Shown here piece by piece: positions 9,055 through 37,927 of a stretch of DNA of 64,000 bases. The stretch's first letter is position 1. Every line of letters starts with the position of its first letter. Source of the DNA: Sphingobacterium kitahiroshimense (GTDB lineage Bacteria; Bacteroidota; Bacteroidia; Sphingobacteriales; Sphingobacteriaceae); NCBI RefSeq assembly GCF_025961315.1, contig NZ_JAOQNK010000001.1:1550001-1614000 (forward strand), in the 5' to 3' direction. The position numbers were made by a program, and so were the translations under genes. Under the pieces are notes generated by a model, which was not told the origin of the DNA, searched no databases, and worked only from the letters and a program-made list of their open reading frames with translations.

Positions 9055-9272
9055 GACTTTAAAGAACTCTCCAATTAGCATGAAATCCATTAAGAAGATC
9101 AAAATGGATTATTTTTTATACCATTCAATGTTTTGATAATTTACACTGACGTAAATTTAGATTTCACTAATAATAAGCAAAAAAATGCAATCAATTAGGA
9201 ACATTTAAAATCCCCTTTTTTAATATACTATTTAAATTTGTGCCAATTAATTATTTTTCAACAGTATAATTA

Positions 9273-9303
9273 TTTCGCTAATATGGGATTTTTCATATCT
9301 TTG
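9273..9303 (+). promoter_or_regulatory. Probable promoter of the first IPT lipoprotein array
   Basis: An exact -7 element TATCTTTG at 9296-9303 lies 28 bases before the ATG at 9332, with a weaker TTTCG at the -33 position (9273-9277). Confidence 0.5.
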
Positions 9304-9331
9304 CGATCTAATAGCCATCTTAATTATACTT

Positions 9332-12757: not shown

Positions 12758-12779
12758 TCCATCATACTATATATACGAT

Positions 12780-14477
12780 ATGAAACGCATTATATATCTC
12801 TTAGTCGTAACAATAATCACGTTAGGTAGTTGTACCAAAACCGAAAATAAAGTAGAGGCTGTCGACACCAAACCTATAAATTTAGAAGCACCTATAGTTG
12901 ACGGAATATCCAAGGAAGGAGCCACACTTTCGTGCCGTATCCTTTCTCTCAACAATGAGTCTGTCCAAGACTATGGAGTTCTGATCTATAAGATGGAAAG
13001 TGGAAATTTGAAAAAAGAGCAAGAGATATCGGTCGGTAAAGACGTAAAAATTGGAAAACTTAATTACTCCTTTCTTCCGAAGGGAGGATTAAAGAGTTAT
13101 GAAACCTATGCTATTGCTTTTTATATACAAACCGAAAAAGGATTTTATAGATCAATTCCCACTACAATCCACTGGAATAATATCGCTATACAAGCTGTTG
13201 ATCAAAAAAATGTCACATCGGGTGAAAAAATTATTGTTAACGGAAATTTTGAAGGCATCGACGAATCATATTTCGTCCTCAATTCTGGTAATCAATCAAG
13301 TGTTTCCTATCAAATAAGTTCAGATAAAAAAAGTTTAACCTTTGATATCCCTAAAACCACAGTACCACACGGGACTACAATGGAATTTTATCTGCAAAAT
13401 AAAACAAATAATAGTTCTTTACCTGGGTATGAAAGCTATTTACTGGCACGCGTTAAAATAGTCGGTACTATTGATCCGATCACTGTCACTCAGATTTACT
13501 TAGGCACTCCGATCAAGCTTACAGGAAAAAATCTACCCAATATGTATGATTCGCCAGCAGACTTTCAATTGATTGTAAACGGAATAAAAGTAAAATATCA
13601 AAATCCATTAAACTTAATAGATGTGGAAGGGTTAAAGGGCAATAATTTTAAGATTGGTTATACTAATGGTAAAGAAGAGATCATATTCCCTATTCCCGTC
13701 AAGCTATTTACACCTAATAAAGACGATATCAGTTTTGCTACACAAGTAGTACATCCAAAGAGCACATTGCAGATTAAAGGTCTAAAATTTGGGCAATTCT
13801 TTAATTACAGTCAAGTGACAGTCCTATTCGACGGCAAAGCATTGCCACCTAGCTACGATTATAACGATGAGTATTTAAATGTTACCGTCCCTGATGTAGC
13901 AAACGGCTTTTATAGTGTTGGTATCAACAGTGCCTTTTATGATAAACTAGAAAGCAAAAATAAGATTGAAGTTCGAAAACTTGTGTTATCAAATATAGAT
14001 GTGCAGCAAGCTTACGTTGGCGATAAAATTACGATCAAAGGTTCCTTTATTGATGGTCAACAATATGGTTTGGCATTAAATGACAATGGATATTTTGATG
14101 TGAAAGCCGATAATGGAGAAGTAAGCTTCCTGGTTCCAGATAGTAAGACTGGCCATACCGCTATTAAAATATATTACTATGGAACCAATGATCAATATTA
14201 TGCCGGAGAAAATCTTTCTTTCAAAATAGAAAAAAGTAGCATCAGCAGCGTAAGTCCACTGCAAGCATACCCTGGCGACCTGATTACCGTAAAAGGAAAT
14301 GGATTGACACAGGCTAGTTTTGTTTATTTAGGTGGAAAGTATGTTAATGTTGTAAATAGAACCAAAGATGGATTTCAATTTTTAGCACCATCCAATTTTA
14401 TCCAGTCTAAAGGACGTGTTACCATCAATATCAATGAGGATATTATCCAGTCGGACGACTATATTGAAATCAAGTAA
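12780..14477 (+). CDS. IPT/TIG-type surface lipoprotein, paralogue 3 (B type)
   Basis: The ATG at 12780 is chosen because it starts a perfect lipoprotein signal (MKRIIYLLVVTIITLGSC, Cys18); the open frame extends 132 bases further upstream into the previous gene but without signal features. The mature protein (565 residues before cleavage) starts TKTENKVEA and has the same order of domains as its paralogues, ending in an IPT/TIG domain (VSPLQAYPGDLITVKGNGL). It is the 'B' type together with the gene at 17180: both start with Cys-x-Lys-Thr-Glu and have 'QDYGVLIY'/'TDYGIVIG' in the first domain. A terminator follows at 14520. Confidence 0.85.
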   Translation: MKRIIYLLVVTIITLGSCTKTENKVEAVDTKPINLEAPIVDGISKEGATLSCRILSLNNESVQDYGVLIYKMESGNLKKEQEISVGKDVKIGKLNYSFLPKGGLKSYETYAIAFYIQTEKGFYRSIPTTIHWNNIAIQAVDQKNVTSGEKIIVNGNFEGIDESYFVLNSGNQSSVSYQISSDKKSLTFDIPKTTVPHGTTMEFYLQNKTNNSSLPGYESYLLARVKIVGTIDPITVTQIYLGTPIKLTGKNLPNMYDSPADFQLIVNGIKVKYQNPLNLIDVEGLKGNNFKIGYTNGKEEIIFPIPVKLFTPNKDDISFATQVVHPKSTLQIKGLKFGQFFNYSQVTVLFDGKALPPSYDYNDEYLNVTVPDVANGFYSVGINSAFYDKLESKNKIEVRKLVLSNIDVQQAYVGDKITIKGSFIDGQQYGLALNDNGYFDVKADNGEVSFLVPDSKTGHTAIKIYYYGTNDQYYAGENLSFKIEKSSISSVSPLQAYPGDLITVKGNGLTQASFVYLGGKYVNVVNRTKDGFQFLAPSNFIQSKGRVTININEDIIQSDDYIEIK

Positions 14478-14519
14478 TAATGCATGATACGAGCATAGTC
14501 AAACAGTAAAAATAATAAA

Positions 14520-14543
14520 AGCACCCAGTGAGAGGTGCTTTTT
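14520..14543 (+). terminator. Rho-independent terminator of lipoprotein array 1
   Basis: Stem AGCACC / GGTGCT with an eight-base loop and a T run, 43 bases after the stop of the third lipoprotein gene. Confidence 0.85.
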
Positions 14544-14608
14544 CCTTTCCATCACTGCTGGCATTTTTTCAAGAGTACTATCAAAAATGGAAATTAGTTT
14601 AGTATATT

Positions 14609-14683
14609 AGGGTCTGGTTAATCATCAATTCGGACTTGGTTTGATGGATTGCCCTAGATAGTTACATATCTGGGGCTTTTTTT
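14609..14683 (+). ncRNA. Putative small RNA with two hairpins, copy 2
   Basis: Second copy of the block at 7129-7243, including about 40 bases upstream of the predicted start. The -7 element is TAGTTTAG (one mismatch). Hairpin 1 is TCATCAA 14622-14628 / TTGATGG 14641-14647; the terminator hairpin is GCCCTAGATAG 14651-14661 / ATATCTGGGGC 14666-14676 followed by seven T. Relative to copy 1, substitutions in stem 1 and in the terminator stem give G-U pairs rather than mismatches (one terminal pair is lost), consistent with selection on the RNA fold. Confidence 0.55.
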
Positions 14684-14803
14684 GTGGTAATACAAAAAGC
14701 AATTATGGTTTAGATAAAGATTTAATTAAAGACTCCTTTTCTATGTTTAAGAATTATTGAGGATAGATATCGCTTTTTTTATATTCCCCTTAGAACTGTT
14801 TCA

Positions 14804-14945
14804 GCTAGTAAGAAAGTTATGAGGTGACATTGTTAATAGGTTAGTTAAATGGTGAGGAGTGGCGATTGTTAATCCGTTAGTAAGAAAGTTATGGGATTAG
14901 ATCGTAAGCAGGTTAATTAAACGGCTATGAGACTGCGGAATCAGT
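14804..14945 (+). repeat. 72-bp imperfect tandem repeat, two units
   Basis: The segment AGTAAGAAAGTTATG occurs at 14807 and again at 14879, and AGGTTAGTTAAATGG / AGGTTAATTAAACGG are also 72 bases apart. The units are diverged, non-coding in all frames that I tried, and have no evident function. Confidence 0.6.
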
Positions 14946-15084
14946 ACTTTAGAAATCGTATACTTTAGTTCCTCATGAAATTAATATTATGTACCACTTA
15001 CCCTTTGGTATATTATAAAATTTTGCGTTATTTCACAATGTTGATAATTAATCTAAATACATTTTCCCCAAACAAAACGTTCTG

Positions 15085-15249
15085 ATGCTTTATGCACGCG
15101 TTACTGCTGAGGAGATCAAAGAATTACAACAACTAAAAGGCAATACCAGTGTCCATAACTTCCTCATGCAGCTAAAACACTTGATTAGAAGTGATACAAT
15201 AAAAAGCTATGTAATAAATAATAAATATTTATATTTGAACGAAATATAA
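15085..15249 (+). CDS. Small hypothetical protein or gene remnant (54 aa)
   Basis: An open frame from ATG 15085 to TAA 15249 codes for a 54-residue, mixed-charge, helical peptide (MLYARVTAEEIKELQQLKGN at its start). The codon use and the amphipathic pattern look protein-like, unlike the surrounding DNA, and the first 35 residues resemble the start of a DNA-binding or transposase-type helix bundle. It may be the end of a decayed gene. I do not recognise a family. Confidence 0.35.
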   Translation: MLYARVTAEEIKELQQLKGNTSVHNFLMQLKHLIRSDTIKSYVINNKYLYLNEI

Positions 15250-15420
15250 ATCACCTTTTATACTAAAGTTAAGTTGCTCTCCAAAATCCATGTAGTCTTT
15301 TAGTTTCTATGCTCTTATTTCATTTAAGACTGGACCTTAAAGTATACCTGCTATTAAAGATCAATCTACAGCCATAATAAAAAGATTTTTTATGCACATC
15401 AAATAACATTTTTAATTAGC

Positions 15421-17154
15421 ATGTACTTTAAGTTTACCAATTCCATTCTGCGCACGGCACTTCCTTACAGCCTGCTCATCTTTACTATTTCTTTCTTTTT
15501 ACTAAGCTGCAGTAAAGAAGAAAAAATAACTATGATCGATACAACTCCAATTTCAATAGAAATAGATGGTTACAAAAACTTAAAAAAAGATGAAATCACA
15601 TTGTTAGGTAAAGTAACCTACCTAAATGATGAAAAAATTATTGATTTTGGATGGATTATCCAAGAACGTTTATTTGATGAGTCAGGAAAAGAAAAAGTGG
15701 TGGAAACTACAATCAGCATGGGCAAAGATCCAAAAGTAGGTACCGTCGAATATCATTACAAACCCAAAAAAAAGTTCGAATTCAATCAAGATTATAGTTA
15801 TTTCTTATACTTAAAGACTGAAGAAAATGTTTACCGTTCAGAAAGCAATTCCTTTGTATTTAATGGCCTTGTTATAAAGACAGAGAAAACGTTAAAAGCT
15901 GCATTTGGCGATCAAGTAACCATAGAGGGGGATTTCAGTATAATAAATAGCGACTTTCAGCTCCAAATTGATGATTTTACAACGACAAGTATTCCTTATG
16001 AAGTAAAAAAAAATGGAACAATACTTAATTTTCAATTTCCCAAAAACCCTGGAAACATTTTCAGTGGTGAAGAACTAAATATTACCCTTAATAAAGTTGA
16101 TCGAAACAAAACATACCGTGCCATTATAGGAAAAATTAAAGTCATAGCCACTGCAGAAGTGTCTGCAAAATTAAGTTACAAGTTTAGCGAGTCAATTGAC
16201 TTTACGTCAAATGATTATTCACCTTCTAATCCACGCAATGGTTATCTAAAACTACTAATTGGAGACAATATTATTGATTTCACCAATAACGTCTATTTTA
16301 GGCACCTCAAAAAGGTCTCTCCGACCATGCGTATTGGATATATTAATGATCGAGATACTGTTATCTTTAAAGATGTCGTTACTTTTGAATTACCAGACCA
16401 AAAGCTAATTAATTTTAGCAGTATTGCTGTACATCCCCATTCCGATTTCAAACTTACAGGTGTAAATTTTGGTCAATACTTCACCAATCTTAATCCAATT
16501 GCACTTTTCGATAATAAATATCAAATATCATATCATGAGAATAATAATAGTTTCGTCGTCCCCGATATCCCAGACGGCACCTATAGTCTTACATTAAGAT
16601 ATCCGATAGGTACATTAAACATACCCAAAAACATTGAAGTCAGAAAATTAAAATGGACCAGTTTATCTACTATTAATCCCCATTATGGTGAAACTGTCAC
16701 TATCAAGGGTAATTTTATCAAAGGTCAAGAGTATAGGATATTGACTCCCGAAAATCAAGACCAAGCGACGGTAGTTGCAGAAAAAGAAAATCAACTCGAA
16801 GTCGTAATATCGCCAAGATCTTTCTCTTCAGGTGAATGGAAAATAGGATATCGTGACCAGGATTACAACTTTACTTACAACGATAAAAGTCAATTTGTAA
16901 CAATCAAATCACCTGTGCTTACTTCAGCCAGCCCTCTCCGCGGAAGAATAGGCCAAGTGATCACACTGAAAGGAGCAGGTATTTCCTATATTAATCGCGT
17001 TATGCTCGGCGATATGGATGTATACCGCACCGAAATAAACAATAATGAAATTCAAATCACAGTACCATCTTATGCACCAAAAGGCAAGATGAGATTGTCA
17101 ATTATTACAAAAGACCAAATAAACACGCTACCAGAATTATTTGAAGTTTATTAA
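15421..17154 (+). CDS. IPT/TIG-type surface lipoprotein, paralogue 4
   Basis: A 577-residue lipoprotein (Cys30 in FFLLSC, followed by SKEEK, a surface-export-like acidic stretch). First domain with 'IIDFGWIIQE' and 'YFLYLKTEENVYRSES'; several beta-sandwich repeats; C-terminal IPT/TIG domain (SASPLRGRIGQVITLKGAGI, about residues 498-575). It is closest to paralogue 2 at 11039 and is followed 25 bases later by a B-type paralogue, just as paralogue 2 is, so the two-gene array is best read as a duplicated A-B pair. No enzyme motif is visible; extracellular binding is an inference. Confidence 0.85.
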   Translation: MYFKFTNSILRTALPYSLLIFTISFFLLSCSKEEKITMIDTTPISIEIDGYKNLKKDEITLLGKVTYLNDEKIIDFGWIIQERLFDESGKEKVVETTISMGKDPKVGTVEYHYKPKKKFEFNQDYSYFLYLKTEENVYRSESNSFVFNGLVIKTEKTLKAAFGDQVTIEGDFSIINSDFQLQIDDFTTTSIPYEVKKNGTILNFQFPKNPGNIFSGEELNITLNKVDRNKTYRAIIGKIKVIATAEVSAKLSYKFSESIDFTSNDYSPSNPRNGYLKLLIGDNIIDFTNNVYFRHLKKVSPTMRIGYINDRDTVIFKDVVTFELPDQKLINFSSIAVHPHSDFKLTGVNFGQYFTNLNPIALFDNKYQISYHENNNSFVVPDIPDGTYSLTLRYPIGTLNIPKNIEVRKLKWTSLSTINPHYGETVTIKGNFIKGQEYRILTPENQDQATVVAEKENQLEVVISPRSFSSGEWKIGYRDQDYNFTYNDKSQFVTIKSPVLTSASPLRGRIGQVITLKGAGISYINRVMLGDMDVYRTEINNNEIQITVPSYAPKGKMRLSIITKDQINTLPELFEVY

Positions 17155-17179
17155 TTTAATATACAGCACAAAATTAGCA

Positions 17180-18862
17180 ATGAAAACTCTAATCCATTAT
17201 ATCTTATTTTTAATCACGCTACTGGTTATAGGATGCAGCAAGACAGAAGACCGTGTAGAAGCTGGAATCACAAAACCATTTCTTTTTGACGAGATGAAGC
17301 TTGAAAGCATGAATGGGGAAAGTATTGTCTTTTCAAGCAAACTCTTAGAGGAAAATAAGGATAAAATAACAGACTACGGTATTGTGATAGGATATACCCA
17401 AAGCGGAGAAACAAATGAAGAAAAAATTTCACTTGGTACAACGCCTATATTGGGACCGATTTCTTACGAATATAAACCGAAATCACCATTCAAAGTGGCG
17501 ACAGATTACTACGTACAATTCTATATCCAAACAGCAAAAGGATTTTACACGAGTCATAAATTACCCTTCACAGCTGGTTACCTACAAGTAACAGAAGGGC
17601 TTCACCAATATGCCAATACGGGAGATACCATATCGGTAGGAGGCAATTTTGATGGTATTGATAAGGACTTCAAATTAAAAAACTCAATAAATGATGTAAG
17701 TATACCATTCACCATCAACACGGAAAAAAATCTTATCACATTTATTGTACCCCAAAATTCCTTAGATCATGGGGCTGGTATCCGTTTCAATCTCGTTAAA
17801 CAAAAATCTAACACTGAAAAATTTATTTTTGAATTATGTGAAACGATCATTGTGGCCAAATTAAACCCTCCTTCAGAAAAAAAAGTGTATCTAACAGATG
17901 CCATTACCTTCACTGGAACTAATCTCCCCGGACCATATAGTTACAGGGATGAGTTATGGTTATTAATAGGTGGACAAAAGTTCAAGTTTCAAAGTACGAT
18001 ATCCCTAGCGATTATAGATGGCCTTAAAGGTACAAGTTTCAAAATTGGTTATTTAAGTGGTAATGATAGCATTATCTTCCCCCACCCTATTGAACTTCTT
18101 CAGCCTGGGGGACAAAACATACATATATCCCCTAAAGTTGTCCACCCATCTTCAAATTCTCTTATTACTGGTGATAATTTTGAAAAATTTTACGGAGCGG
18201 CATGGAACACGATATATGTTGGAAAACAAGTAGTAGAGAAGCCAAGTTATTACGACCGAGGGTTTTCATTTAAGATTCCTCAAATGAAAGACGGAACATA
18301 TACAGTGACAATTTCCAATCCATTTTTTAACATAAGCAGTACCGAAACAGTAGAAGTCCGCAAATTAAAAATAGCCGACATCAGTACTACGACCGTATAT
18401 CCTGAAGAAAAAATTACGATAAAAGGTAATTTTATAGATTATACCAACTATGTAGTACGTATTGGCGAACATGAGGTTATTGCATTAGCACTAAATGGAG
18501 AAATTACGTTTAACAACAGCTCAGAAAGTAGTGGCACTAAAACCGTTTCAGTCTGCTATGTAGCAAATGATGGTGAAACGACTTTTGCGGATAAAACTTT
18601 TAACGTCAAATCTGAAAAAGGATTTATTAGTTCCGTCAATAAAACTGAAGGCTATCCTGGAGATGTGATTACTGTTAAGGGAAAAGGGTTTTCAGTATTT
18701 GCCACTTACAAATTAGGTAATACTCCAATTATTATGCTTAATAGAACGTCTGATGAATTTACATTTTTGATTCCCACAAATTTGCCAAAAGGAAAAAGTA
18801 AAATATCAATCAACATGGGTGACTACATACTTGAATCACCAGATTATCTTGACATAAAATAA
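17180..18862 (+). CDS. IPT/TIG-type surface lipoprotein, paralogue 5 (B type)
   Basis: The ATG at 17180 is used since it begins a clean lipoprotein signal (MKTLIHYILFLITLLVIGC, Cys19); an ATG 39 bases upstream would overlap the previous gene and spoil the signal. The 560-residue product has 'TDYGIVIGYTQSGE' in its first domain, the conserved 'FKIGYLSGNDSIIFP' stretch in its middle, and a final IPT/TIG domain starting SVNKTEGYPGDVITVKGKGF. Its closest relative here is the gene at 12780. It ends the second array; no strong T-rich terminator follows at once, but a hairpin occurs at 18956-18980. Confidence 0.85.
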   Translation: MKTLIHYILFLITLLVIGCSKTEDRVEAGITKPFLFDEMKLESMNGESIVFSSKLLEENKDKITDYGIVIGYTQSGETNEEKISLGTTPILGPISYEYKPKSPFKVATDYYVQFYIQTAKGFYTSHKLPFTAGYLQVTEGLHQYANTGDTISVGGNFDGIDKDFKLKNSINDVSIPFTINTEKNLITFIVPQNSLDHGAGIRFNLVKQKSNTEKFIFELCETIIVAKLNPPSEKKVYLTDAITFTGTNLPGPYSYRDELWLLIGGQKFKFQSTISLAIIDGLKGTSFKIGYLSGNDSIIFPHPIELLQPGGQNIHISPKVVHPSSNSLITGDNFEKFYGAAWNTIYVGKQVVEKPSYYDRGFSFKIPQMKDGTYTVTISNPFFNISSTETVEVRKLKIADISTTTVYPEEKITIKGNFIDYTNYVVRIGEHEVIALALNGEITFNNSSESSGTKTVSVCYVANDGETTFADKTFNVKSEKGFISSVNKTEGYPGDVITVKGKGFSVFATYKLGNTPIIMLNRTSDEFTFLIPTNLPKGKSKISINMGDYILESPDYLDIK

Positions 18863-18955
18863 AATATCAATCAACAATGCCTTAAACAATTAGGAAGATT
18901 AACGTCACTTCTGGAGTTTCATGCATAAAACAAAAAATAATACCTTTTATAATAA

Positions 18956-18980
18956 AGGGGATAGCAAAAAGCTACCCCCT
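18956..18980 (-). terminator. Hairpin after the small membrane-protein genes, copy 1
   Basis: AGGGGATAGC and GCTACCCCCT form a 10-base stem with one mismatch around an A5 loop. The equivalent hairpin at 23982-24010 is longer. It lies in the convergent space between the lipoprotein array (plus) and the small minus-strand genes and may terminate both. Confidence 0.5.
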
Positions 18981-19030
18981 ATAAACTGTGAACCTTTAAA
19001 GTTAATCTCGTCTCATTTTAGGAGAAAAAA

Positions 19031-19204
19031 CTAGTCGCTTTTACGTCGCCGTACTCTACCTAGGAGCCTACTGGTCACAAAACTCACAACTGTACCTAAT
19101 GCTGCCATCAAGGCTGTTTGGAATAAATCCCCCAAAGAAAAGCTTGCCCAGGTCGAACACAGCTTCCCACCTATAGTACCGATCCGTATATCATTCCATT
19201 TCAT
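19031..19204 (-). CDS. Small holin-like membrane protein (57 aa), copy 1
   Basis: The ATG at 19204 gives a 57-residue protein (MKWNDIRIGTIGGK at the start) with one membrane-spanning or amphipathic helix (LFQTALMAALGTVVSFVTSRLL) and a strongly basic tail (RVRRRKSD). Nearly the same protein is encoded at 24062-24235. The start codon overlaps the end of the preceding small gene by 14 bases in both copies, so the two are translationally coupled. Size and topology recall phage holins, and the complete copy sits beside a DUF5675 gene often found in phages; this is only an analogy. Confidence 0.7.
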   Translation of the reverse strand: MKWNDIRIGTIGGKLCSTWASFSLGDLFQTALMAALGTVVSFVTSRLLGRVRRRKSD

Positions 19205-19416
19205 CATGAACCTCCTTTTCTTTTTGTGAAGAATCCTCCGCCAGTGGTGGCGACTCCCCCACTCCTTTTTTATCTTTATCATCCAGCACCGTTTCTACCA
19301 CACCAAGACCCAGCGCGATGTATTTAATAATATTCAATGCCTTTCCCGGCAATTTAATCGGCGTCATAATCACAACCTGTAGAGCATGGCTTATTTTTTT
19401 GAATTATATTTTTCAC
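19191..19416 (-). pseudogene. Small membrane protein, N-terminally frameshifted copy
   Basis: Homologue of the 74-residue gene at 24222-24446. The C-terminal 58 codons are intact from ATG 19367 (TPIKLPGKALNIIKYIALGL onward), but an extra base in the A run of the first codons (seven rather than six in the equivalent stretch, about 19393-19399) puts the N-terminal 16 codons out of frame, and the start codon equivalent is GTG (19416) rather than ATG. A shortened protein could still be made from 19367, keeping the single membrane helix. Confidence 0.65.
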
Positions 19417-19501
19417 CTGTTTATTAATTTTTTTTCAATTGAACAACTGTGATTTACAAAACGAATACGGTTTCCCGTAAAATCCACCATTAGTATTAAA
19501 A

Positions 19502-19509
19502 TATATTCG
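19502..19509 (+). promoter_or_regulatory. Possible -7 element for the ubiquitin gene
   Basis: TATATTCG differs from TAnnTTTG at one base and lies about 50 bases before the probable start. No convincing -33 element was seen. Confidence 0.25.
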
Positions 19510-19559
19510 CAGCAGAATTAAATATTTAAAAAAACACAATTCAAACGATAATTATAAAT

Positions 19560-19886
19560 ATAAAAAAAATCCTACTTACAGGCCTAGTATTAAGCTTATG
19601 TCTTAATCCTTGCTCAATTTTTGCAAATAAGTCCATTGAGACAAGTACTTTAGCTAATGCAGCTAGTTTTCAAATTTTTGTAAAAACACTTACTGGTAAA
19701 ACAATTACCCTAGAAGTAACCTCATCTACCACCATACAAAATGTAAAATTTAAAATTCAAGATAAAGAAGGATTCAAACCTGATCAACAAAGGATAATTT
19801 TTGGTGGTAAACAATTGGAAGATGGCAGAACATTATCTGATTACAATATTGGTAAAGAGGCTACTATTTTTCTCGTTCTAAAATAA
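19560..19886 (+). CDS. Exported eukaryotic-type ubiquitin homologue
   Basis: The frame codes for a Sec signal peptide ([21 protein letters not shown]), a 16-residue linker ([14 protein letters not shown]) and a 72-residue domain beginning [17 protein letters not shown]. Aligned by hand to eukaryotic ubiquitin, 57 of residues 1-72 are identical. All seven lysines (6, 11, 27, 29, 33, 48, 63) and the Leu8/Ile44/Val70 patch are kept. It stops after LVLK, so the Leu-Arg-Gly-Gly tail needed for conjugation is absent. There is no ATG, GTG or TTG in frame: the position expected for Met is ATA at 19560 (AAT ATA AAA AAA ATC), so either a rare start is used or the start is mutated. There are no internal stops or frameshifts, and a good terminator follows. 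The only precedent that I know is the secreted ubiquitin BfUbb of Bacteroides fragilis, which is linked to antagonism between strains. Confidence 0.9.
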
Positions 19887-19898
19887 TAAAATAGTGAA

Positions 19899-19941
19899 TT
19901 AGACCAGAAAAAGTATCATAAACTTTACTGGTCTAATCTTT
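19899..19941 (+). terminator. Terminator of the ubiquitin gene
   Basis: Long stem: TTAGACCAG (19899-19907) pairs with CTGGTCTAA (19928-19936), and the inner AAAGT/ACTTT also pairs; TCTTTA follows. It ends transcription 13 bases after the ubiquitin stop and implies that the gene is its own unit, separate from the JAMM lipoprotein gene. Confidence 0.75.
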
Positions 19942-20103
19942 ACACGCAAATTTAAAAATAACAACTTGCGTCCCGAAAGATCCAATTTAAAACATTGCCT
20001 GAGAAAGCGATGGATAAAAAATTACACTCGGCACAGTTGAAAAGAATTTACTCAAAGTGCTTTTCCCTATGGCCTTTGTGTAACATAAACAACAAGTATT
20101 ATT

Positions 20104-21669
20104 ATGTTAAGACCAAATAAAAAAAAAATAAAGTATTTATCAATAATTACAATACTATTTTTCCTTATTTTAAATTCATGTAGTGATGACAATAAATATG
20201 ATTTTTCATCACACGAAAACAAACAAAAATCAGCAAACATCAAAGAGATAAAGAACTGGTATAATCAATTAGGAATTGAAAAGAGGATGTATGACACTTT
20301 GACTTCAGATTTAATAACCACTTATATTCCAAAATGGGATAAAGCAAGATATTCAGAAGTAAATGATTCTACAAATCATACCATAATTCCTTTATCAATA
20401 ATTAGTAAGAAAGGAGATAAGGAACTCTTAGGAAAATCTCTTTATAATGAGTCTTTTTTACTGGTTAAAAATAACAATGATTTTTATTTTGGTAATTTTT
20501 TTCCCGACGAAAACTCGAAACAATCATCAGATGAAAATTTTCTACAAAATGGAACGTTAATCTTAATTGATGTTATATCAAGACATCAATTTACATATAT
20601 TTATAAAAATGGTAATGCACAATTTCAAAAACCAAAATTAGATAGTAAAAAAATGTCTTTTTATGACGATGAATACATTGTACTTAGATCTTGTGCAATA
20701 GTAAATTTGTGCACTTGGTATACAATATGTCCTGACGGGATTGTTACCTTAGCACCAAGTCGTGGCGGAGCATGTAATCCACCATATCACCTAGGCTTCT
20801 GTAGGGATGGTAGTTTTGCAGGTGAGTGGAAGCAAAGAACACAAACACATACTACAATAGAGTGTCAAGACGTATTATGGCCAATTCCACCAAAAGATGA
20901 ACCGGGTTGGGGGGGAGGTGGATCTACTATTGATATAGAAAATCCCATTGAACGAATTGCAAGTTTATATCATTCCGAAGGATTTAGACAATTTCCTATA
21001 GATCCTTGTGATGCAATAAAAAAAGCAAATGAATTAACATCAAATCCCCAAGTTATATCAAAGATAAATGATATAAAAAATAAAACTTTGGAAAATGGGG
21101 CATATATTTATTCATCATCTAATACAGATATGACTACTAAATATGTTGGACCTCATATATCAAGTCCAAATGAAAGTTTAATAGAAATCGGTACTCCAAG
21201 CTGGAGCTCATCAGGTGGTTATGCCACAGGTTTCATCCACAACCACCCTAATGGAGGTGCACCCAGTCCATCAGATATTTTTGTTCCGGCCCAAGATCTA
21301 ATCGATTTTGCTTCAGATAAGACCATGTCTTATGAAATGCTTAAAGGGTATATTCAGAATTATACGTCCATAATTGTAAGTGGTGAATATGTTTACACGG
21401 TAACTATTCGAGATCCTTTCTTTTTTGCTTTGGCGCAAAATAGTCATAAATCAAAAAGAGGTTATGAAAAAGCAAGATTTACAGAAAAAATACATGATTT
21501 TATAGAAAACACAGACGGAACCAAAGAGGATGTTCAGAGAGGTGGAGACGCAGCGTTATTAGATTTATATGGTAAACTAATCAATATTAGCAAACAAAAA
21601 ATAGGAGAACCCAATACGAATAAAGCACTTATTTTCACAAATGGTGTTGCTAGTTTAAAAGATTGTTAA
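20104..21669 (+). CDS. Surface lipoprotein with JAMM-like metalloprotease domain
   Basis: A 521-residue lipoprotein: signal peptide with Cys26 (LNSC), then SDDN, which matches the Ser-Asp-Asp type of surface-export signal. A central part with several cysteines (about 197-240) and a Gly-rich linker (GWGGGGS, about 270) lead to a C-terminal domain with H379-N-H381-P-N-G-G-A-P-S388-P-S-D391 and candidate catalytic Glu357 or Glu361. JAMM/MPN isopeptidases use E...HxHx7Sx2D; here the loop is one residue shorter. JAMM enzymes cut isopeptide or peptide bonds of ubiquitin-like proteins, and a ubiquitin gene ends 218 bases upstream. Similar HNHP domains also occur in polymorphic toxin proteins, so a toxin or immunity role is an alternative. 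Eleven bases separate it from the next gene. Confidence 0.75.
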   Translation: MLRPNKKKIKYLSIITILFFLILNSCSDDNKYDFSSHENKQKSANIKEIKNWYNQLGIEKRMYDTLTSDLITTYIPKWDKARYSEVNDSTNHTIIPLSIISKKGDKELLGKSLYNESFLLVKNNNDFYFGNFFPDENSKQSSDENFLQNGTLILIDVISRHQFTYIYKNGNAQFQKPKLDSKKMSFYDDEYIVLRSCAIVNLCTWYTICPDGIVTLAPSRGGACNPPYHLGFCRDGSFAGEWKQRTQTHTTIECQDVLWPIPPKDEPGWGGGGSTIDIENPIERIASLYHSEGFRQFPIDPCDAIKKANELTSNPQVISKINDIKNKTLENGAYIYSSSNTDMTTKYVGPHISSPNESLIEIGTPSWSSSGGYATGFIHNHPNGGAPSPSDIFVPAQDLIDFASDKTMSYEMLKGYIQNYTSIIVSGEYVYTVTIRDPFFFALAQNSHKSKRGYEKARFTEKIHDFIENTDGTKEDVQRGGDAALLDLYGKLINISKQKIGEPNTNKALIFTNGVASLKDC

Positions 21670-21679
21670 TTTAAAAAAT

Positions 21680-22249
21680 ATGATGATGAAAAAATTTATT
21701 CTAATAACAATTTCATTTTTGGTTGGAGCGACCATTTGTAAAGCTCAGGAATTTATAGGCTTGAAAAAAGGATATACCACTCCAGAACAAGTTAATAACG
21801 CTAGAAAAAAAATACATGCGGATTGGTTTGGATCCATAATAGAGCAAGATCCAATATTAATAGGTTCATTAAAGCGGAATTCCGCTTATTTTGAAATGGA
21901 TTATAAAAATCAAGGTTTCATAAATAAAGGTTTTCTATCTATAACAAATAAAAAGCCTAACACTACAAACAAAACTATTGATGAAATAATTAAATTTGAT
22001 ACTAACTGGTATTTTCAAGAAACAAAAGTAGAAAATCGAGTGACTGGCTTTATCAGAAGTACAGTAATTCAAGCCGGTTACTACTTTGATGATACACTTA
22101 CAATTATTTATATCTATTTTTTAAACAATAACACAAAAGAAATTGTTCTAGCTAAACCAGAAATCCTCGGCACAAAGGATGAAAAAATTGCTTTTACTAA
22201 AGATTTTATTAAGAAATATGCTAATATAAAATGGAAGATAAAAATATAA
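21680..22249 (+). CDS. Small exported protein of unknown function
   Basis: A 189-residue protein with three possible ATG starts in a row and a clear Sec signal peptide (FILITISFLVGATICKAQ). The mature part is mixed alpha/beta, with no motif that I recognise. It begins 11 bases after the JAMM lipoprotein gene and ends before a strong terminator at 22319, so the two form an operon. Its likely partner is therefore the JAMM protein; an inhibitor, substrate or immunity role is possible but unsupported. Confidence 0.75.
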   Translation: MMMKKFILITISFLVGATICKAQEFIGLKKGYTTPEQVNNARKKIHADWFGSIIEQDPILIGSLKRNSAYFEMDYKNQGFINKGFLSITNKKPNTTNKTIDEIIKFDTNWYFQETKVENRVTGFIRSTVIQAGYYFDDTLTIIYIYFLNNNTKEIVLAKPEILGTKDEKIAFTKDFIKKYANIKWKIKI

Positions 22250-22574
22250 ATGTATCCGATCTAAATACGTTTTATAAAAATTCATTATTAAGACACATAA
22301 TTTTAAATTAAAGAATTGATATTGAATCAGATCGGACGATCTGATTCAATATTTTTTATTTCTAGCCATCTATAAAGCTGCTATAATACACATATACGAG
22401 ATGAAAGTGGTGTTGTTCATATATTCAAAAATACATATCTATTCCATTAGTAATAAAATCACAACAACAAATCCATCATTTTTAAATTAAAAACATGAAT
22501 TTCATTCGCATTTCAAATTTTATAATAGTTGTCATTAAATCATTCGAACACATTTATTTATATTTGAATTAGAA
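22250..22574. other. Intergenic stretch
   Basis: Contains the terminator at 22319-22358. The rest (22359-22574) is AT-rich and presumably holds the kinase promoter; I see no ORF or clear promoter element. Confidence 0.5.
22319..22358 (+). terminator. Strong rho-independent terminator after the JAMM operon
   Basis: Fifteen-base perfect stem ATATTGAATCAGATC / GATCTGATTCAATAT with a four-base loop and a T run, 70 bases after the stop codon. Confidence 0.95.
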
Positions 22575-23887
22575 ATGGGAAAAGAAAAAGTAAAAATTAG
22601 AAATTATAAAAAAAATAAAATAATTCTTGCTACATCAGCCGTTCTAATAATTGTTGCGTCAATATTTATACTCGGAAATATAAATTCGAGCATTGACGAA
22701 TTGAACGCTAGTGAAATGCTCGATGTCGCTAATCATAAGTACGAAATTGTAACTCAAGAACTTGAAATTCTTGATAAAATCTACACATACTTACCCGAAA
22801 GTGATAGTATTTTTCTTGCAAATATCCATATTGACACAAGATCTAAGAACAATCTATATAATTTAAATGAAAGTAATAGCTTCAAAAATGCCATAAGTGT
22901 TGACTTAAATACATTAAATAACTACCTAGCAAATCGAAAATATGGACACCGTAGTTACTTCAAGCTTTTCGACAAATCAGGAATCTGTTTAATAAGCCCT
23001 GAAAAGAAGGATATTGGAAAATACTATGACAGGTATAAATTCAATGAAATTGATAAAAAAATTATTAAGTCAGATTTCCTTGGTATAGATGTTTTTGTAA
23101 AGAATTATCCGTCAAATATAATTTTCAAAGACGCGACAATCATAGTTTCTGTTCCAATATTAACATTTAAAGAAGATGTTCAAAAGCTATCAAACCACAG
23201 TTTGCTACTAGGACTAGGCGACATGTTTATTGTCTCCCTATTATTTTATTTGTTCATTTTGGAACAAAGGAAAATCGAACGGTTGCAATTGCAAAATCTT
23301 GGCAAGGAAAATGAACACAATAAAATAAAATACCTTCATCTGCGAGAGCAATTTAATCCTCATTTTTTATTTAATTCATTAGGATCTCTGACGCATTTAA
23401 TTGGGAAAGACATAGAGCTATCCAAAAAATTTATAGTCAAGATGACCAAGTTTTACCGAAAAATAATACAGACCAATGCAAAAGAACTTGCTACTGTACA
23501 TGAAGAGATAGAATTGGCTAAAGATTACATTTTTTTACAAAAGGTACGTTTTGGAGACTCCATAAGTGAAATTCAATATCACTTACCTGATCATGTATTG
23601 ACCTAAAACTACCGAGGTTTTCAATTCAAATGCTTTTTGAAAATGCAATTAATAGCAGTCAATTTTCATCTAAAGCACCACTTAAAATTACAATTGACTT
23701 TGATCATGAAAACATGACTCTTAAAATCGTATATACTTTTGTTGCAAAATCTTCTACTTATCTAGATAATACTGATAAAAGTTTCATACTTTTAAAATCA
23801 ATTTATCAGTATTATAATACAGATAAATTTGATTATCAAATTATTGAGAATAATTTTTCAGTAACCTTGCCGCTGATTGAAGAATAA
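22575..23887 (+). pseudogene. LytS-type sensor histidine kinase, frameshifted
   Basis: The 5' part (22575-23606) codes for a membrane anchor (about residues 16-36), an extracytoplasmic sensor domain, a second membrane segment (about 212-232) and a His_kinase domain with EQFNPHFLFNSLGSL (phospho-acceptor His263). It stops at TAA 23604-23606. A one-base shift restores KLPRFSIQMLFENAI, the N-box region, and the frame at 23630-23887 continues to the end. A lost C in the run near 23600 explains this. The usual Gly-rich ATP-binding motif is also degenerate in the tail. No response-regulator gene follows. It is probably inactive as a kinase. Confidence 0.8.
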
Positions 23888-23981
23888 AAACATTAGCTAA
23901 ATACCTAACTCTTCATTATCATCTCCAATCTCAGGGTAAGTTTTTGAATGTATAAAAGAAAGTGTAATACCACTTTATATT

Positions 23982-24010
23982 AAAGGGGATAGTAAAAAGC
24001 TATCCCCTTT
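23982..24010 (-). terminator. Hairpin ending the module operon
   Basis: AAAGGGGATAGT / GCTATCCCCTTT, 12-base stem (one G-U) around an A5 loop. On the minus strand it lies 50 bases after the stop of the 57-codon gene. Confidence 0.65.
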
Positions 24011-24061
24011 AGTTTGTGAACCTTTAAAGTTAATCTCGTCTCATTTAATAGGGAGAAAAAA

Positions 24062-24235
24062 CTAGTCGCTTTTACGTCGCCGTACTCTCCCTAAAAGCTT
24101 ACTTGTCACAAAACTCACCACCGTACCCACCACAGCCATTAAGGCTGTTTGTAGGAGATCCCCTAAAGAAAAGCTTGCCCAGATTGAACACAAAGTACCC
24201 CCGATAGTGCCTATCCGGATATCATTCCATTTCAT
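24062..24235 (-). CDS. Small holin-like membrane protein (57 aa), copy 2
   Basis: Read from the minus strand at ATG 24235: MKWNDIRIGTIGGTLC, a hydrophobic segment LLQTALMAVVGTVVSFVTSKLL, and a basic RVRRRKSD tail. It differs from the copy at 19031-19204 at a handful of residues, all conservative, which suggests that both are or were under selection. Its start overlaps the end of the 74-residue gene by 14 bases. It is the last gene of the complete module (252-aa protein, DUF5675, 74 aa, 57 aa). Confidence 0.75.
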   Translation of the reverse strand: MKWNDIRIGTIGGTLCSIWASFSLGDLLQTALMAVVGTVVSFVTSKLLGRVRRRKSD

Positions 24236-24446
24236 CCCTTACCTCCTTTTCTTCCTGCTGCACGATAGGTACAGCTGGTGGCGACTTCCCCACTCCTTTT
24301 TTATCTTTATCATCCATTACGGTCTCCACCACACCAAGACCCAGTGCGATGTATTTAATAATATTTAATGCCTTGCCCGGCAGTTTAATCGGCGCCATAA
24401 GCACCACCTGTAGCGCACGGCTTATTTTTTGAATTATATTTTTCAT
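24222..24446 (-). CDS. Small membrane protein (74 aa) of the module
   Basis: ATG 24446 starts MKNIIQKISRALQVVL; an upstream open stretch to 24509 has no conserved counterpart. One membrane helix (ALNIIKYIALGLGVVETVM) follows a Lys/Pro-rich segment, and the C-terminus is acidic (EEKEVRDEME). The reading frame is intact, unlike the copy at 19191-19416. It lies between the DUF5675 gene and the 57-residue gene. I do not recognise the family. With the next gene, it could form a two-component membrane-active or anchoring pair. Confidence 0.7.
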   Translation of the reverse strand: MKNIIQKISRALQVVLMAPIKLPGKALNIIKYIALGLGVVETVMDDKDKKGVGKSPPAVPIVQQEEKEVRDEME

Positions 24447-24540
24447 TTGTTTAATTGTTAGTAGGTTAGAAACTATTACTCTTAACTCCGTTACCACATC
24501 ACTCGTCACTCTGTTACTTCGTTACTCCTTCACTACGTCA

Positions 24541-24945
24541 CTACTTAATATGTAAAAACACGTCCTGCTCCATATCCCAAAGCGAATAAACCAGAGACTT
24601 CAATTTTGCGAGTGCCTTTTTACTTTCCGTACCGCAACCTTCCCCTGTCAGTGTAGTGACCGGAGCGATGCATCCCAATAACTGCTTCTGTGCATCGTTG
24701 GCCGCATGGATCAATATCGCTTCGCGTCCCAGTACAGCAGGAATTCCGATCTGCTTTCCATGTCTGGTATACTTTCGTTTTTCCAATTTATAACTCCCTA
24801 CCGGGATACAGCTGAGCCTTGGCAGGTTATTGCGCCAGGGTAATTCGATAGTACGGCAGATGACCTCACCTTCAAAAGTAAGTGTACCGTTCGTTCCCTG
24901 CTCTCCATAAATCCGTTGGAGATGCAAGATTTTTTTTGTTGACAT
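24541..24945 (-). CDS. DUF5675-family protein
   Basis: A 134-residue protein with the DUF5675 hallmarks: a short N-terminal strand pair (LHLQRIYGEQGTNGTLTF), then CRTIELPWRNN, the CIPVGSYKLEKR loop, an ILIHAAN motif and a Gly-Cys-Gly turn near residue 104. The 'IPxGxY...IHxGN' arrangement recalls L,D-transpeptidase or peptidoglycan-related folds, and the family is common in phages and prophage remnants of Bacteroidota, but its biochemical function is not established. It has no signal peptide. Located in the module downstream of the 252-residue protein. Confidence 0.8.
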   Translation of the reverse strand: MSTKKILHLQRIYGEQGTNGTLTFEGEVICRTIELPWRNNLPRLSCIPVGSYKLEKRKYTRHGKQIGIPAVLGREAILIHAANDAQKQLLGCIAPVTTLTGEGCGTESKKALAKLKSLVYSLWDMEQDVFLHIK

Positions 24946-25067
24946 TTTTTGATTGATTAAAAAGAATAAGAAGTTCTTTTTAGATGAAAGGATATATCAG
25001 GAGGCACAAGTTCATCAATAACGAACGGCCTCCTGAAGATATCCCATCAATACACGATTAAATTAGG

Positions 25068-25826
25068 TTACGGTATCACGACCTGATGAATGGTCAGCGC
25101 ATTGTACTGCCCATTTGCCAATGGATAATAAGCACCGTTCACAAGCTGATAATACCCTGTCCCTACCAGTACCATCACACTTTTATCAGGATCATGAACA
25201 ATAGTCGCCGCAATATCCAGATCCATAGGCTGCATTTCACCAAGCATGATATAAGCAGACCGCTGGATCACAGGACGCTGATCTGTTTCATCTCCCGAGA
25301 ACTCCTGCAGCACCAACGTGTACTGCACATGCGTTGCCCCACTCAGCTTGGCAATATGCAGATTCGGAATCAATTGCTCGCATGTTAAAAAACCTTCACC
25401 GCTAAAATTGTCGAAGGAAACCGACAACGGTTTTAACGTGATATTTTTTAAACTGGCGCGCTGATTACATTCCAGACCATTCAGCAGCACCATGTTCTGC
25501 GGTACTAAAACGCGTTCCCCGCGGACACTCACCGGATCCATCTGGATGACTTTTAACATCCGGCTCGCCAGCCTGGAGCTGAATTTGTTGTCCGCATTTT
25601 CAAACAGCACATCGCGCAACAGATCGCGTAGCTTTTTGCCCTCCTGCTGCGCTCTGCCAAATTCACTGCCGTTCTCACGGGTACGTGCAAATGCTGGATC
25701 ATTGGCAATACGGTCACCCGATACACCGGTTTTCATACGTGCCTGATAACCCACACTTTTTGATTTGTAAAAGGAAAGATCCCCGATCGTTCCATTTAAT
25801 TTGATTAAACTTTCTACTCTTGCCAT
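25068..25826 (-). CDS. Uncharacterised Bacteroidota 252-aa family protein
   Basis: The 252-residue protein begins MARVESLIKLNGTIGDLSFY and continues with GVSGDRIANDPAFARTRENG, a segment that I associate with a widespread, multi-copy and uncharacterised Bacteroidota family. There is no signal peptide. The N-terminal third is rich in charged helix; the C-terminal part looks all-beta. A truncated copy, with a 12-base in-frame deletion, lies at 36767-37144. It is the first gene of the minus-strand module and faces the divergent 65-residue gene across an 11-bp phased repeat array. Confidence 0.7.
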   Translation of the reverse strand: MARVESLIKLNGTIGDLSFYKSKSVGYQARMKTGVSGDRIANDPAFARTRENGSEFGRAQQEGKKLRDLLRDVLFENADNKFSSRLASRMLKVIQMDPVSVRGERVLVPQNMVLLNGLECNQRASLKNITLKPLSVSFDNFSGEGFLTCEQLIPNLHIAKLSGATHVQYTLVLQEFSGDETDQRPVIQRSAYIMLGEMQPMDLDIAATIVHDPDKSVMVLVGTGYYQLVNGAYYPLANGQYNALTIHQVVIP

Positions 25827-26369
25827 GACATTATTGTTTTGACACTGCTAAGATGATCATCAGTACAAAAGCACTGGGATCAAAAGCGTGGAAAAGAAGA
25901 AAAATGCGGAAAAATGATACTGAATTGGCGTAATAAATTGACGAAAATGTACCGAAATGAGAATAAAACTATTTTTTATAGAAAAAACTTATCTTAGTAA
26001 ATGAATAACCAATAACATCATTTTCTGGAGAGGAATCAAACCTAATCTGCAAAGCTTAAGGAATAAAGTATGCTTTAAACTTGGACGTTACCTAGTGATC
26101 AAGCATGGCATAAGCGTATATAAAGCGTAGATAGAGCATAGATACAGTGTAAAAACAGTATGTTTCATGCACTTACAACGCACTTAACACGCACTTAGCC
26201 TATGCGCATACTGTACATAGCAAAATAAGCTTTATGCGTGCTTGATTTATGCTTTATACCTGCTTAACAGGTGGTTTGATAGGATATGTTTGTCTGCGGG
26301 AGTAACAAATCACGAACAATCCAGATGATCTGATTATCAAAAGATCATCCCTCTAAAAACCAGGATAAC
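25827..26369. other. Divergent control region of the module, complete copy
   Basis: Non-coding 540 bases, repeated with good similarity at 37145-37674. It includes the 11-bp phased array at 26114-26223 and presumably both divergent promoters. Conservation of this non-coding DNA between copies suggests that it is a functional part of the unit. Confidence 0.6.
26114..26223 (+). repeat. Array of about ten 11-bp phased units
   Basis: Successive units start GCGTATATAAA, GCGTAGATAGA, GCATAGATACA, GTGTAAAAACA, GTATGTTTCAT, GCACTTACAAC, GCACTTAACAC, GCACTTAGCCT and so on, each 11 bases long and mostly starting with G. In the copy at 37431-37529 exactly one unit (11 bases) is missing, which shows that 11 bp is the true repeat unit. 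Spacing near one helical turn would place bound proteins on one face of the DNA. Probable operator or iteron. Confidence 0.7.
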
Positions 26370-26567
26370 ATGAAAAATAACGATCGTTTATGCATATACC
26401 CCAAAGAAGCGGCGGTTATATTAGGACGTACAGAAAAACACACCTACAAAATCTTCCAGTCTATACGCGATTGCTACGGACTGAAAGCAAACCAGTATGT
26501 CAGCATCAGTATATTTGCGGAGTATACTGGATTACCGGAAGAAGAAATTAGAAAGCTACTGCTCTAA
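26370..26567 (+). CDS. Small helix-turn-helix-like protein (65 aa), copy 1
   Basis: A 65-residue protein with 'IYPKEAAVILGRTEKHTYKI' near its start and 'YVSISIFAEYTGLPEEEIRKLL' at its end, like excisionase/MerR-type winged helix proteins that read 'xxxAAxxLGxSxxTxxR'. A nearly identical copy is at 37675-37872 (Glu to Asp at one place), and a decayed piece is at 29914-29969. It stands divergent from the 252-residue gene, with the phased repeats between them, so it is the obvious candidate to bind that array. A conserved hairpin follows (26581-26604). Confidence 0.75.
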   Translation: MKNNDRLCIYPKEAAVILGRTEKHTYKIFQSIRDCYGLKANQYVSISIFAEYTGLPEEEIRKLLL

Positions 26568-26580
26568 TTAGCTTTAAATA

Positions 26581-26604
26581 GAAACAGCTGGAGAGGACTG
26601 TTTC
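26581..26604 (+). terminator. Conserved hairpin after the 65-aa gene, copy 1
   Basis: GAAACAG / CTGTTTC with a ten-base loop; the same hairpin occurs at 29983-30006 and 37886-37909. It lacks a long T run, so it may be a weak terminator or an end signal of the module. Confidence 0.5.
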
Positions 26605-26662
26605 TAAACAAGCTACCCTGAAAAGTAAAGGCAGGAATTATTTACTTCAATAAGCAACAAAA

Positions 26663-36394: not shown

Positions 36395-36838
36395 ATGGAA
36401 GCAACAAAAGGGATGAATTATAGTCAAATTATCATAAAGAAAATTACAATAGTTGTATGTTTTATTTGTGCAATAGGACATTCATCGTATGGAAAGAAGA
36501 AATACCTCCTATTAGATAGTCTGAAACACTCCTATAATGTAGAAAGGTACACTTTAAAGATGGATTCATTATATCGTGTTGCGAGTACAGTTGAACTTTT
36601 CAATATTATATTGCCAGAACAAGAAGGTTTGGTACTAATTTCTGTTTTACCTCCAAATTTAAATGACAAAGGTTTATGGACAAAAATCAATATTGAAAAT
36701 ATTGCAGTAGACGATTATATAAAACCTGCCGATTATACTAAATATTTTGAATTTACACTGCATATCCTAAACCCTCATACCCTGCCATTTCACCTGAATA
36801 AGAAAAACATTCAGCAGCACCATGTTCTGCGGTACTAG
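36395..36838 (+). CDS. Exported protein truncated by a module copy
   Basis: Starts MEATKGMNYSQ (or at ATG 36413) with a membrane/signal segment (ITIVVCFICAIGHSSYGKK). The last 10 or so codons (from about 36809) are read from the antisense strand of the 252-residue-family copy, so the native C-terminus has been lost. It lies 106 bases after the GLPGLI gene and may once have been part of that locus. No recognised domain. Confidence 0.55.
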   Translation: MEATKGMNYSQIIIKKITIVVCFICAIGHSSYGKKKYLLLDSLKHSYNVERYTLKMDSLYRVASTVELFNIILPEQEGLVLISVLPPNLNDKGLWTKINIENIAVDDYIKPADYTKYFEFTLHILNPHTLPFHLNKKNIQQHHVLRY

Positions 36839-37872: not shown

Positions 37873-37885
37873 TAAATTTTAAATA

Positions 37886-37909
37886 GAAACAGCTGGAGAG
37901 GACTGTTTC
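37886..37909 (+). terminator. Conserved hairpin after the 65-aa gene, copy 2
   Basis: GAAACAG / CTGTTTC with the same loop as the two other copies; also in the convergent space before the response-regulator stop at 37928. Confidence 0.5.
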
Positions 37910-37927
37910 TAAACAAATTTGATCAAT

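What the first reader, a model, noticed from the sequence alone, without database searches (positions are those of the whole stretch)
19560..19886. An exported, near-canonical ubiquitin gene in a Bacteroidota genome
The translated domain matches eukaryotic ubiquitin at 57 of 72 positions by hand alignment, with no gap, behind a bacterial Sec signal peptide and linker. This is far closer than ordinary bacterial beta-grasp proteins (ThiS, MoaD, Ubl of Bil systems). The one bacterial precedent that I know is the secreted ubiquitin BfUbb of Bacteroides fragilis, linked to strain antagonism. It would be an independent or shared horizontal acquisition in another lineage.
Basis: partly seen in the sequence, partly recalled or inferred. 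Interest (0 to 1): 0.97.

Follow-up and report, generated by a model that had tools for sequence, protein, structure and literature searches.

The report
Tail-less exported ubiquitin in Sphingobacterium
This Sphingobacterium genome carries a gene for a close relative of eukaryotic ubiquitin that lacks the two-glycine tail used to tag proteins and is predicted to be exported, where it would likely act against rival bacteria as a similar protein of Bacteroides fragilis does; in this species the gene begins with the odd codon ATA, so it may be made weakly or not at all.

Summary
An open frame at 19560-19886 (+) encodes a predicted Sec leader, a linker and a ubiquitin domain identical to vertebrate ubiquitin at 57 of 72 positions. 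It is not contamination: single 6.29-Mb contig, 100% conserved in Sphingobacterium sp. B16, 94% in S. faecium, ubiquitin codons constrained (dN/dS 0.05 from six changes).

Three things were missed. No ATG/GTG/TTG precedes the leader: the S. faecium ATG is ATA here and in B16. The protein ends at ubiquitin residue 72, so the LRGG tail is absent. And B. fragilis is not the only parallel: predicted-secreted ubiquitins without the glycine pair occur in Pedobacter (four in tandem), a Flavobacterium-like genome (two), Ruminococcus and others.

Best reading: a BfUbb-type antibacterial protein in a mobile cassette, possibly silenced in this species. Export, toxicity and target are inferred by analogy, not shown. 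A neighbouring lipoprotein keeps a JAMM-like motif, but that pairing rests on one cassette and the fold was not confirmed. Shared or repeated capture could not be decided.

The parts
19560..19886 (+). ubiquitin frame: ATA at the start position, 108 codons, stop TAA
   Evidence: ATG at the same place in S. faecium, ATA in B16
19560..19625 (+). predicted Sec leader (residues 1-22, ...SIFA); a second possible cleavage site follows residue 34 (LANA)
   Evidence: read from the sequence; no signal-peptide program was run
19626..19667 (+). linker, residues 23-36
   Evidence: read from the sequence; low model confidence
19668..19883 (+). ubiquitin domain, residues 1-72 of ubiquitin, without LRGG
19894..19943 (+). 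hairpin after the stop codon; the pair C-G of the window is T-A in S. faecium; no T run follows, so termination is inferred
   Evidence: pair read by eye
20104..21669 (+). predicted 521-aa lipoprotein with a JAMM-like motif (E330, H379, H381, S388, D391)
   Evidence: invariant in 10 of 10 aligned proteins; fold not confirmed
21680..22249 (+). 189-aa protein of the cassette, predicted secreted, function unknown
22575..23887 (+). histidine-kinase-like gene (PF06580), one frame of 437 aa in S. faecium, two frames here
18946..19423 (.). left direct repeat bounding the cassette (about 84-90% alike to the right one, with small minus-strand frames)
23974..24453 (.). right direct repeat bounding the cassette

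Best explanation
This is a ubiquitin gene, likely captured from a eukaryote or one of its viruses, whose product ends at residue 72 behind a predicted export leader and likely works as a secreted antibacterial protein of the BfUbb type, though in this species its ATA start codon would leave it weakly made or silent. Proposed path, every step inferred: Sec export and leader cleavage; release from the cell; uptake by a rival Bacteroidota cell through an outer-membrane SusCD-type transporter; binding of the folded surface, not conjugation, to a periplasmic target such as a peptidyl-prolyl isomerase, whose sequence variation decides who is sensitive. The gene travels in a cassette bounded by direct repeats of about 480 bp that occupies different chromosomal surroundings in related genomes, as gained and lost competition genes do.
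For: Ubiquitin domain behind a leader in one frame, conserved in two species with dN/dS 0.05 over the domain, 1 non-synonymous against 5 synonymous changes. No glycine tail here, and GG at 75-76 in 0 of 21 tallied bacterial domains against 161 of 215 database domains with a readable tail. Precedent shown by others: BfUbb has a leader, is secreted, lacks the terminal glycine, and as a synthetic 76-aa protein inhibits 13 of 40 B. fragilis strains without an immunity gene being needed (PMC5705921, results and discussion read). Target and import of BfUbb: peptidyl-prolyl isomerase Tyr119 (one passage in PMC12396204) and SusCD (a title in reference lists). Context: cassette with exchanged left flank; a relative in a Pedobacter-group genome lies 417 bp before T6SS TssD, VgrG and a Tle1-like effector; tandem copies in P. 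cryoconitis (four) and G707 (two).
Against: No assay of export, toxicity, import or target. ATA start in both genomes of the species. Bovine ubiquitin did not inhibit B. fragilis (PMC5705921), so the fold alone is not enough, and the last four residues that set BfUbb apart are absent here. BfUbb itself could not be compared. Cassette neighbours do not include a recognised toxin or secretion gene. One leader-bearing ubiquitin with an intact LRGG exists on a contig of the viral collection (L052). The T6SS neighbour and the tandem arrays belong to other genomes.
Confidence: 0.45

Rival explanations
1. In the window's species the gene is a silenced remnant: loss of the ATG makes it a non-producer, while S. 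faecium keeps a working allele. What the protein once did is left open.
For: ATA in both genomes of the species where S. faecium has ATG, with no other common start before residue 86. The kinase-like gene of the same cassette is split here and whole in S. faecium.
Against: The frame has no stop, and its ubiquitin codons show only one non-synonymous change against S. faecium, though decay may simply be recent. A database protein identical except for an initial M exists (P0026, 8 members, longest contig 2120 bases, sources not shown), which may mean strains with a normal start. AUA can initiate weakly in E. coli (recalled).
Confidence: 0.3
2. The ubiquitin and the adjacent JAMM-like lipoprotein work as a pair, the metalloprotease processing, binding or neutralising the ubiquitin.
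For: Adjacent in all 3 of the Sphingobacterium genomes with the free-standing gene; E, HxH, S and D invariant in 10 of 10 aligned proteins; one relative bears the source name MPN domain-containing protein.
Against: Those three share one cassette, so one event. A match to the lipoprotein is in 25 of 93 Sphingobacterium genomes, 22 of them without a counted ubiquitin. A profile of it matches only L002 and L003 among the frames of ten loci, none of the eight others. A hairpin separates the genes. Fold unconfirmed: pTM 0.51 and no Foldseek match at E 0.001, best PDB sequence match E 0.16, JAB-type Pfam models only at E 0.02-0.04 and in other members, none in the window's own protein; HxH to D spacing is 9, not the 10 that I recall for JAMM.
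Confidence: 0.12
3. It is a decoy aimed at eukaryotes (amoebae, nematodes or hosts), blocking ubiquitin-binding proteins or the E1 enzyme.
For: All seven lysines, L8, I44, V70 and R42 are kept; recombinant BfUbb inhibited ubiquitination in HeLa extract and bound human E1 covalently (PMC3352274, abstract and first part of results).
Against: The E1 link of BfUbb was ascribed to its C-terminal cysteine, absent here, and R72 is K. No delivery system into eukaryotic cells was recognised in the cassette.
Confidence: 0.08

Closest known systems
BfUbb (ubb) of Bacteroides fragilis (PMC3352274, PMC5705921)
   Same: Leader-bearing ubiquitin of a Bacteroidota species, no terminal glycine, own small transcription unit reported there and suggested here by the hairpin, patchy occurrence, low-GC surroundings.
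   Different: BfUbb is 63% identical to human ubiquitin over 76 residues, has 76 mature residues with a C-terminal cysteine, and its leader is cut right at residue 1. Here 57/72 identity, an end at residue 72, a 14-residue linker and an ATA start. Sequences were not compared; activity here unknown.
Bacteroides ubiquitin homologues imported by a SusCD transporter (Tong et al. 2024; title only seen, in two reference lists)
   Same: Presumably the same functional class.
   Different: Paper not held; nothing beyond the title could be checked.
Pedobacter cryoconitis S3M1 tandem ubiquitins (L004) and G707 pair (L045), found here
   Same: Leader plus ubiquitin, ending at or a few residues after residue 72, no glycine pair.
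   Different: Leader runs straight into residue 1, ATG starts, tandem copies, other neighbours.
Eukaryotic and viral ubiquitin
   Same: 79% identity, same fold.
   Different: LRGG tail, no leader, used for conjugation.
Bacterial Bil and other E1-linked ubiquitin-like proteins (recalled)
   Same: Beta-grasp fold.
   Different: Those keep a C-terminal glycine and an E1-like partner (recalled); here there is no glycine, and no such enzyme was recognised among the cassette proteins scanned.

Membership tests
BfUbb-type secreted bacterial ubiquitin | ubiquitin domain close to eukaryotic ubiquitin | tested here: met
   57/72 identical, PF00240 E 3.5e-26
BfUbb-type secreted bacterial ubiquitin | N-terminal signal peptide in frame | tested here: met
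   leader read by eye in the frame; it needs initiation at ATA; no prediction program run
BfUbb-type secreted bacterial ubiquitin | no C-terminal Gly-Gly | tested here: met
   stop after K72
BfUbb-type secreted bacterial ubiquitin | 76-residue mature form with C-terminal cysteine, as in BfUbb itself | tested here: not met
   ends at residue 72 with K; not known to be needed for activity, so I file it as a variant, not as BfUbb
BfUbb-type secreted bacterial ubiquitin | secreted and inhibits related bacteria | not testable with these tools
   needs culture
BfUbb-type secreted bacterial ubiquitin | SusCD import and peptidyl-prolyl isomerase target | not tested
   reference sequences not available
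Conjugatable ubiquitin | C-terminal LRGG | tested here: not met
JAMM/MPN metalloprotease (adjacent lipoprotein) | E, HxH, S and D conserved | tested here: met
   10 of 10 rows; HxH to D spacing 9, recalled norm 10
JAMM/MPN metalloprotease (adjacent lipoprotein) | JAMM fold | tested here: inconclusive
   weak model and no fold or sequence match in PDB; Prok-JAB in 4 of 10 members, best E 0.031

The most novel reading that the evidence does not exclude
Bacteria have turned captured ubiquitin into a class of exported, tail-less antagonism proteins: single genes in mobile cassettes (Sphingobacterium), diverged tandem arrays (Pedobacter, four; a Flavobacterium-like genome, two), a T6SS-linked copy and domains of surface proteins, nearly all without the glycine pair; and the Sphingobacterium cassette couples one of them to a JAMM-type lipoprotein, with the start codon lost in one species to give a non-producer.
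Probability: 0.3. Interest if true: 0.85.

Novelty: new variant of a known kind. Interest (0 to 1): 0.62.

Why it matters
Ubiquitin is the emblem of eukaryotic protein tagging. Finding it without its tail, behind export leaders, in several bacterial lineages would mean that bacteria borrowed its folded surface, not its chemistry. A tandem set in one Pedobacter strain and a species pair with ATG and ATA alleles give direct ways to test target specificity and loss of production, outside the gut setting where BfUbb is known.

Tried and rejected
Contamination: rejected (single contig, conserved across two species). Chance similarity: rejected. Phage carriage: no match in 50,697 phage records. Plasmids: one match, R. 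albus pRUMAL01. Deciding one against several captures by tree: failed, 72 columns are too few. Getting the BfUbb sequence: failed; of 353 PDB sequences matched only the best 60 were shown, and none is recognisable as BfUbb. The Nat Commun 2024 paper is not held; the Nat Microbiol 2024 paper was seen only in a passage and a citation. Confirming a JAMM fold: failed. Bacteroidota -7 motif TANNTTTG: 93 matches in the window against 92.6 in shuffles, none on the + strand just before the gene. Sigma-70-type scan: 2 sites against 4.1 in shuffles. Rfam in 18500-25000: none at the gathering score. Start efficiency of AUA: the paper measuring it is not held, and passages of another did not bear on it, so that statement is recalled.

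Rows dropped; of 7 of 93 matches G071 is a histidine-kinase stretch (seen as L038); of 19 of 399 matches eight were not counted, G071 and seven at E 1.4e-4 to 9.5e-4 in frames of about 1150 aa that I did not read. G160 not counted. G853 (E 6.6e-4) not counted. L007, L008 and L009 (31-36% identity) were left out of tree and tail tally. L035, nearly the same as L036, is in the tally but not the tree. The first G707 copy (L045:9293) is in neither because its register shifts by one, and G943 came later; both lack GG by eye. Of 83 distinct database rows 28 went into the tree. In the control tally 54 of 215 database domains lack GG at 75-76; I did not look into why.

Full report
What is there. The frame 19560-19886 on the + strand is open. 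Its 108 codons give a predicted export leader (residues 1-22), a linker (23-36) and a ubiquitin domain (37-108). An AlphaFold model built on an alignment of nine leader-bearing sequences is confident over the domain and overlays solved ubiquitins. All seven lysines, L8, I44, V70 and R42 are kept; residue 1 is F, 68 is F and 72 is K.

First, the start. The codon at the expected start is ATA; an in-frame TAA ends one codon before it; the only ATG, GTG or TTG further on is a TTG at 19815, deep in the domain. The S. faecium orthologue has ATG at exactly this place, while Sphingobacterium sp. B16, of the window's species, has ATA too, so it is not a slip in one genome. A database protein identical except for an initial M (P0026, 8 members, longest contig 2120 bases) may come from strains with a normal start, but its sources are not shown. 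Second, the tail: the protein stops at residue 72, so the LRGG needed for conjugation is absent.

Whose genome. The window lies in a single 6.29-Mb contig, 99.99% complete with 0.81% contamination. Named records with the gene are Sphingobacterium sp. B16 (100%) and S. faecium DSM 11690 (94%); their coordinates match G004 (same species) and G023 (same genus). In the genus search 7 of 93 genomes matched: three hold the free-standing gene (G000, G004, G023), three hold the domain inside frames of 651 to 1886 aa (G052, G053, G063), and one (G071) is a histidine-kinase stretch and not counted.

Cassette. The stretch 19065-24468 is 87.6% identical to S. faecium, and 18946-24945 is 99.85% identical to B16; the 9.4-9.5 kb to its left in those two records match nothing in the whole window. 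It is bounded by direct repeats of about 480 bp, 18946-19423 and 23974-24453, which hold small minus-strand frames, and is followed on the right by DUF5675 and a 252-aa protein; part of that module recurs at 36.8-37.9 kb. This looks like exchangeable cargo; how it is exchanged is inferred. GC of the gene is 0.30 and GC3 0.17, near its cassette neighbours (GC 0.28-0.32).

Selection. Between window and S. faecium the ubiquitin codons have dN/dS 0.05 (1 non-synonymous, 5 synonymous changes), leader and linker 0.36, the lipoprotein and the 189-aa gene about 0.20. With so few changes these are rough. After the stop a hairpin (z -5.9) keeps pairing in S. faecium through a double change, C-G to T-A (read by eye). 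This fits a one-gene transcript, as reported for BfUbb, though no T run follows and the terminator scan did not list it.

Relatives. Of 399 genomes of the family, drawn evenly, 19 matched; after dropping eight, 11 hold a convincing ubiquitin domain, and five of those (the three above, G342, G340) are short leader-plus-ubiquitin genes. P. cryoconitis S3M1 (L004; its coordinates match G342) has four in a row at 9210-10612. G340, of the same genus code as G342, has one on the same side of ahcY, 417 bp before two TssD genes, VgrG, a Tle1-like phospholipase and a DUF4280 protein. G707, Flavobacterium-like by leader style only, has two in tandem, one ending ...PPCN. In the phylum draw 6 of 395 genomes count, own included; in the class draw 2 of 395, own included, the other (G943) continuing into what looks by eye like a type IX sorting tail. 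The R. albus plasmid pRUMAL01 has an annotated ubiquitin family protein; Bacilli and Lachnospiraceae MAGs have fused forms. None of 21 tallied bacterial domains has GG at 75-76, against 161 of 215 database domains with a readable tail. One exception outside that tally: L052, a contig of the viral collection, has a bacterial-type leader and an intact LRGG.

Origin. A tree of 53 rows on 72 columns leaves 30 of 50 inner branches open; its bootstrap had not settled. One clade is not rejected for all 20 bacterial rows (AU p 0.195), nor for the 8 free-standing ones (p 0.327), but the free tree shows neither. Shared or repeated capture stays open, and so does whether the tail was lost once or often.

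How it likely works. The tested precedent is BfUbb: leader, secretion, no terminal glycine, inhibition of 13 of 40 B. fragilis strains, activity of the synthetic 76-aa protein, no immunity gene needed; bovine ubiquitin was inactive (PMC5705921, results and discussion read). PMC3352274 (abstract and first part of the results) adds the C-terminal cysteine and inhibition of ubiquitination in HeLa extract. Later work puts sensitivity at Tyr119 of a peptidyl-prolyl isomerase (passage in PMC12396204) and import at a SusCD transporter (title in reference lists). By analogy the Sphingobacterium protein would be released, imported by a rival and bind a periplasmic target by its folded surface. None of these steps was shown here. 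In the window's species the ATA start probably lowers or stops production (recalled from start-codon work in E. coli).

The JAMM-like neighbour. The next gene encodes a predicted lipoprotein whose C-terminal domain keeps E330, H379, H381, S388 and D391 in all 10 aligned proteins. Ubiquitin beside a deubiquitinase-like motif is tempting, but it is one cassette; a match to some part of the protein is in 25 of 93 Sphingobacterium genomes, 22 of them without a counted ubiquitin; a profile of it matches only L002 and L003 among ten ubiquitin loci searched; and the fold was not confirmed. I treat the pairing as unproven.

In print. Searches for ubiquitin with Sphingobacterium (41 papers, 15 listed), with Pedobacter and signal peptide (5 listed), and for BfUbb and bacterial ubiquitin listed no paper whose title or abstract start is about a Sphingobacteriaceae ubiquitin; passages of the one Pedobacter paper were unrelated. 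The library lacks most subscription papers, and the SusCD paper asked for is not held, so this does not prove absence.

Noticed in passing
window 25478-26607 and 36808-37912: Part of the module after the cassette (252-aa protein and 65-aa protein region) recurs 11.3 kb further on at 88-97% identity; such repeats may serve as exchange points for cargo genes.
   Followed up: partly
window 22575-23887: The histidine-kinase-like gene is split into two frames here and is one frame of 437 aa in S. faecium.
   Followed up: no
window 11039-18862: Run of four related predicted lipoproteins (572-609 aa; the one scanned has a TIG domain) just left of the cassette; B16 and S. faecium have other DNA there.
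   Followed up: no
window 52585-53898: Protein matching putAbiC, putative phage abortive infection (E 7.3e-16).
   Followed up: no
L004:9210-10612: Four tandem, diverged leader-plus-ubiquitin genes in Pedobacter cryoconitis S3M1, each ending at residue 72 or 73.
   Followed up: partly
L031:9931-18104: Leader-plus-ubiquitin gene 417 bp before T6SS TssD x2, VgrG, a Tle1-like effector and a DUF4280 protein.
   Followed up: partly
L052:2905-3231: Leader-bearing ubiquitin with an intact LRGG on a contig of the viral collection; a frame at 565-1101 (-) looks by eye like a cyclophilin-type peptidyl-prolyl isomerase.
   Followed up: no
L050:4992-5732: Ruminococcus albus 7 plasmid pRUMAL01 carries a leader-bearing ubiquitin family protein, with a dockerin protein, an AAA ATPase and a transposase within 5 kb.
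   Followed up: partly
L034, L035, L036, L037: Ubiquitin domains embedded in large frames (up to 2669 aa) of Sphingobacteriaceae genomes.
   Followed up: no
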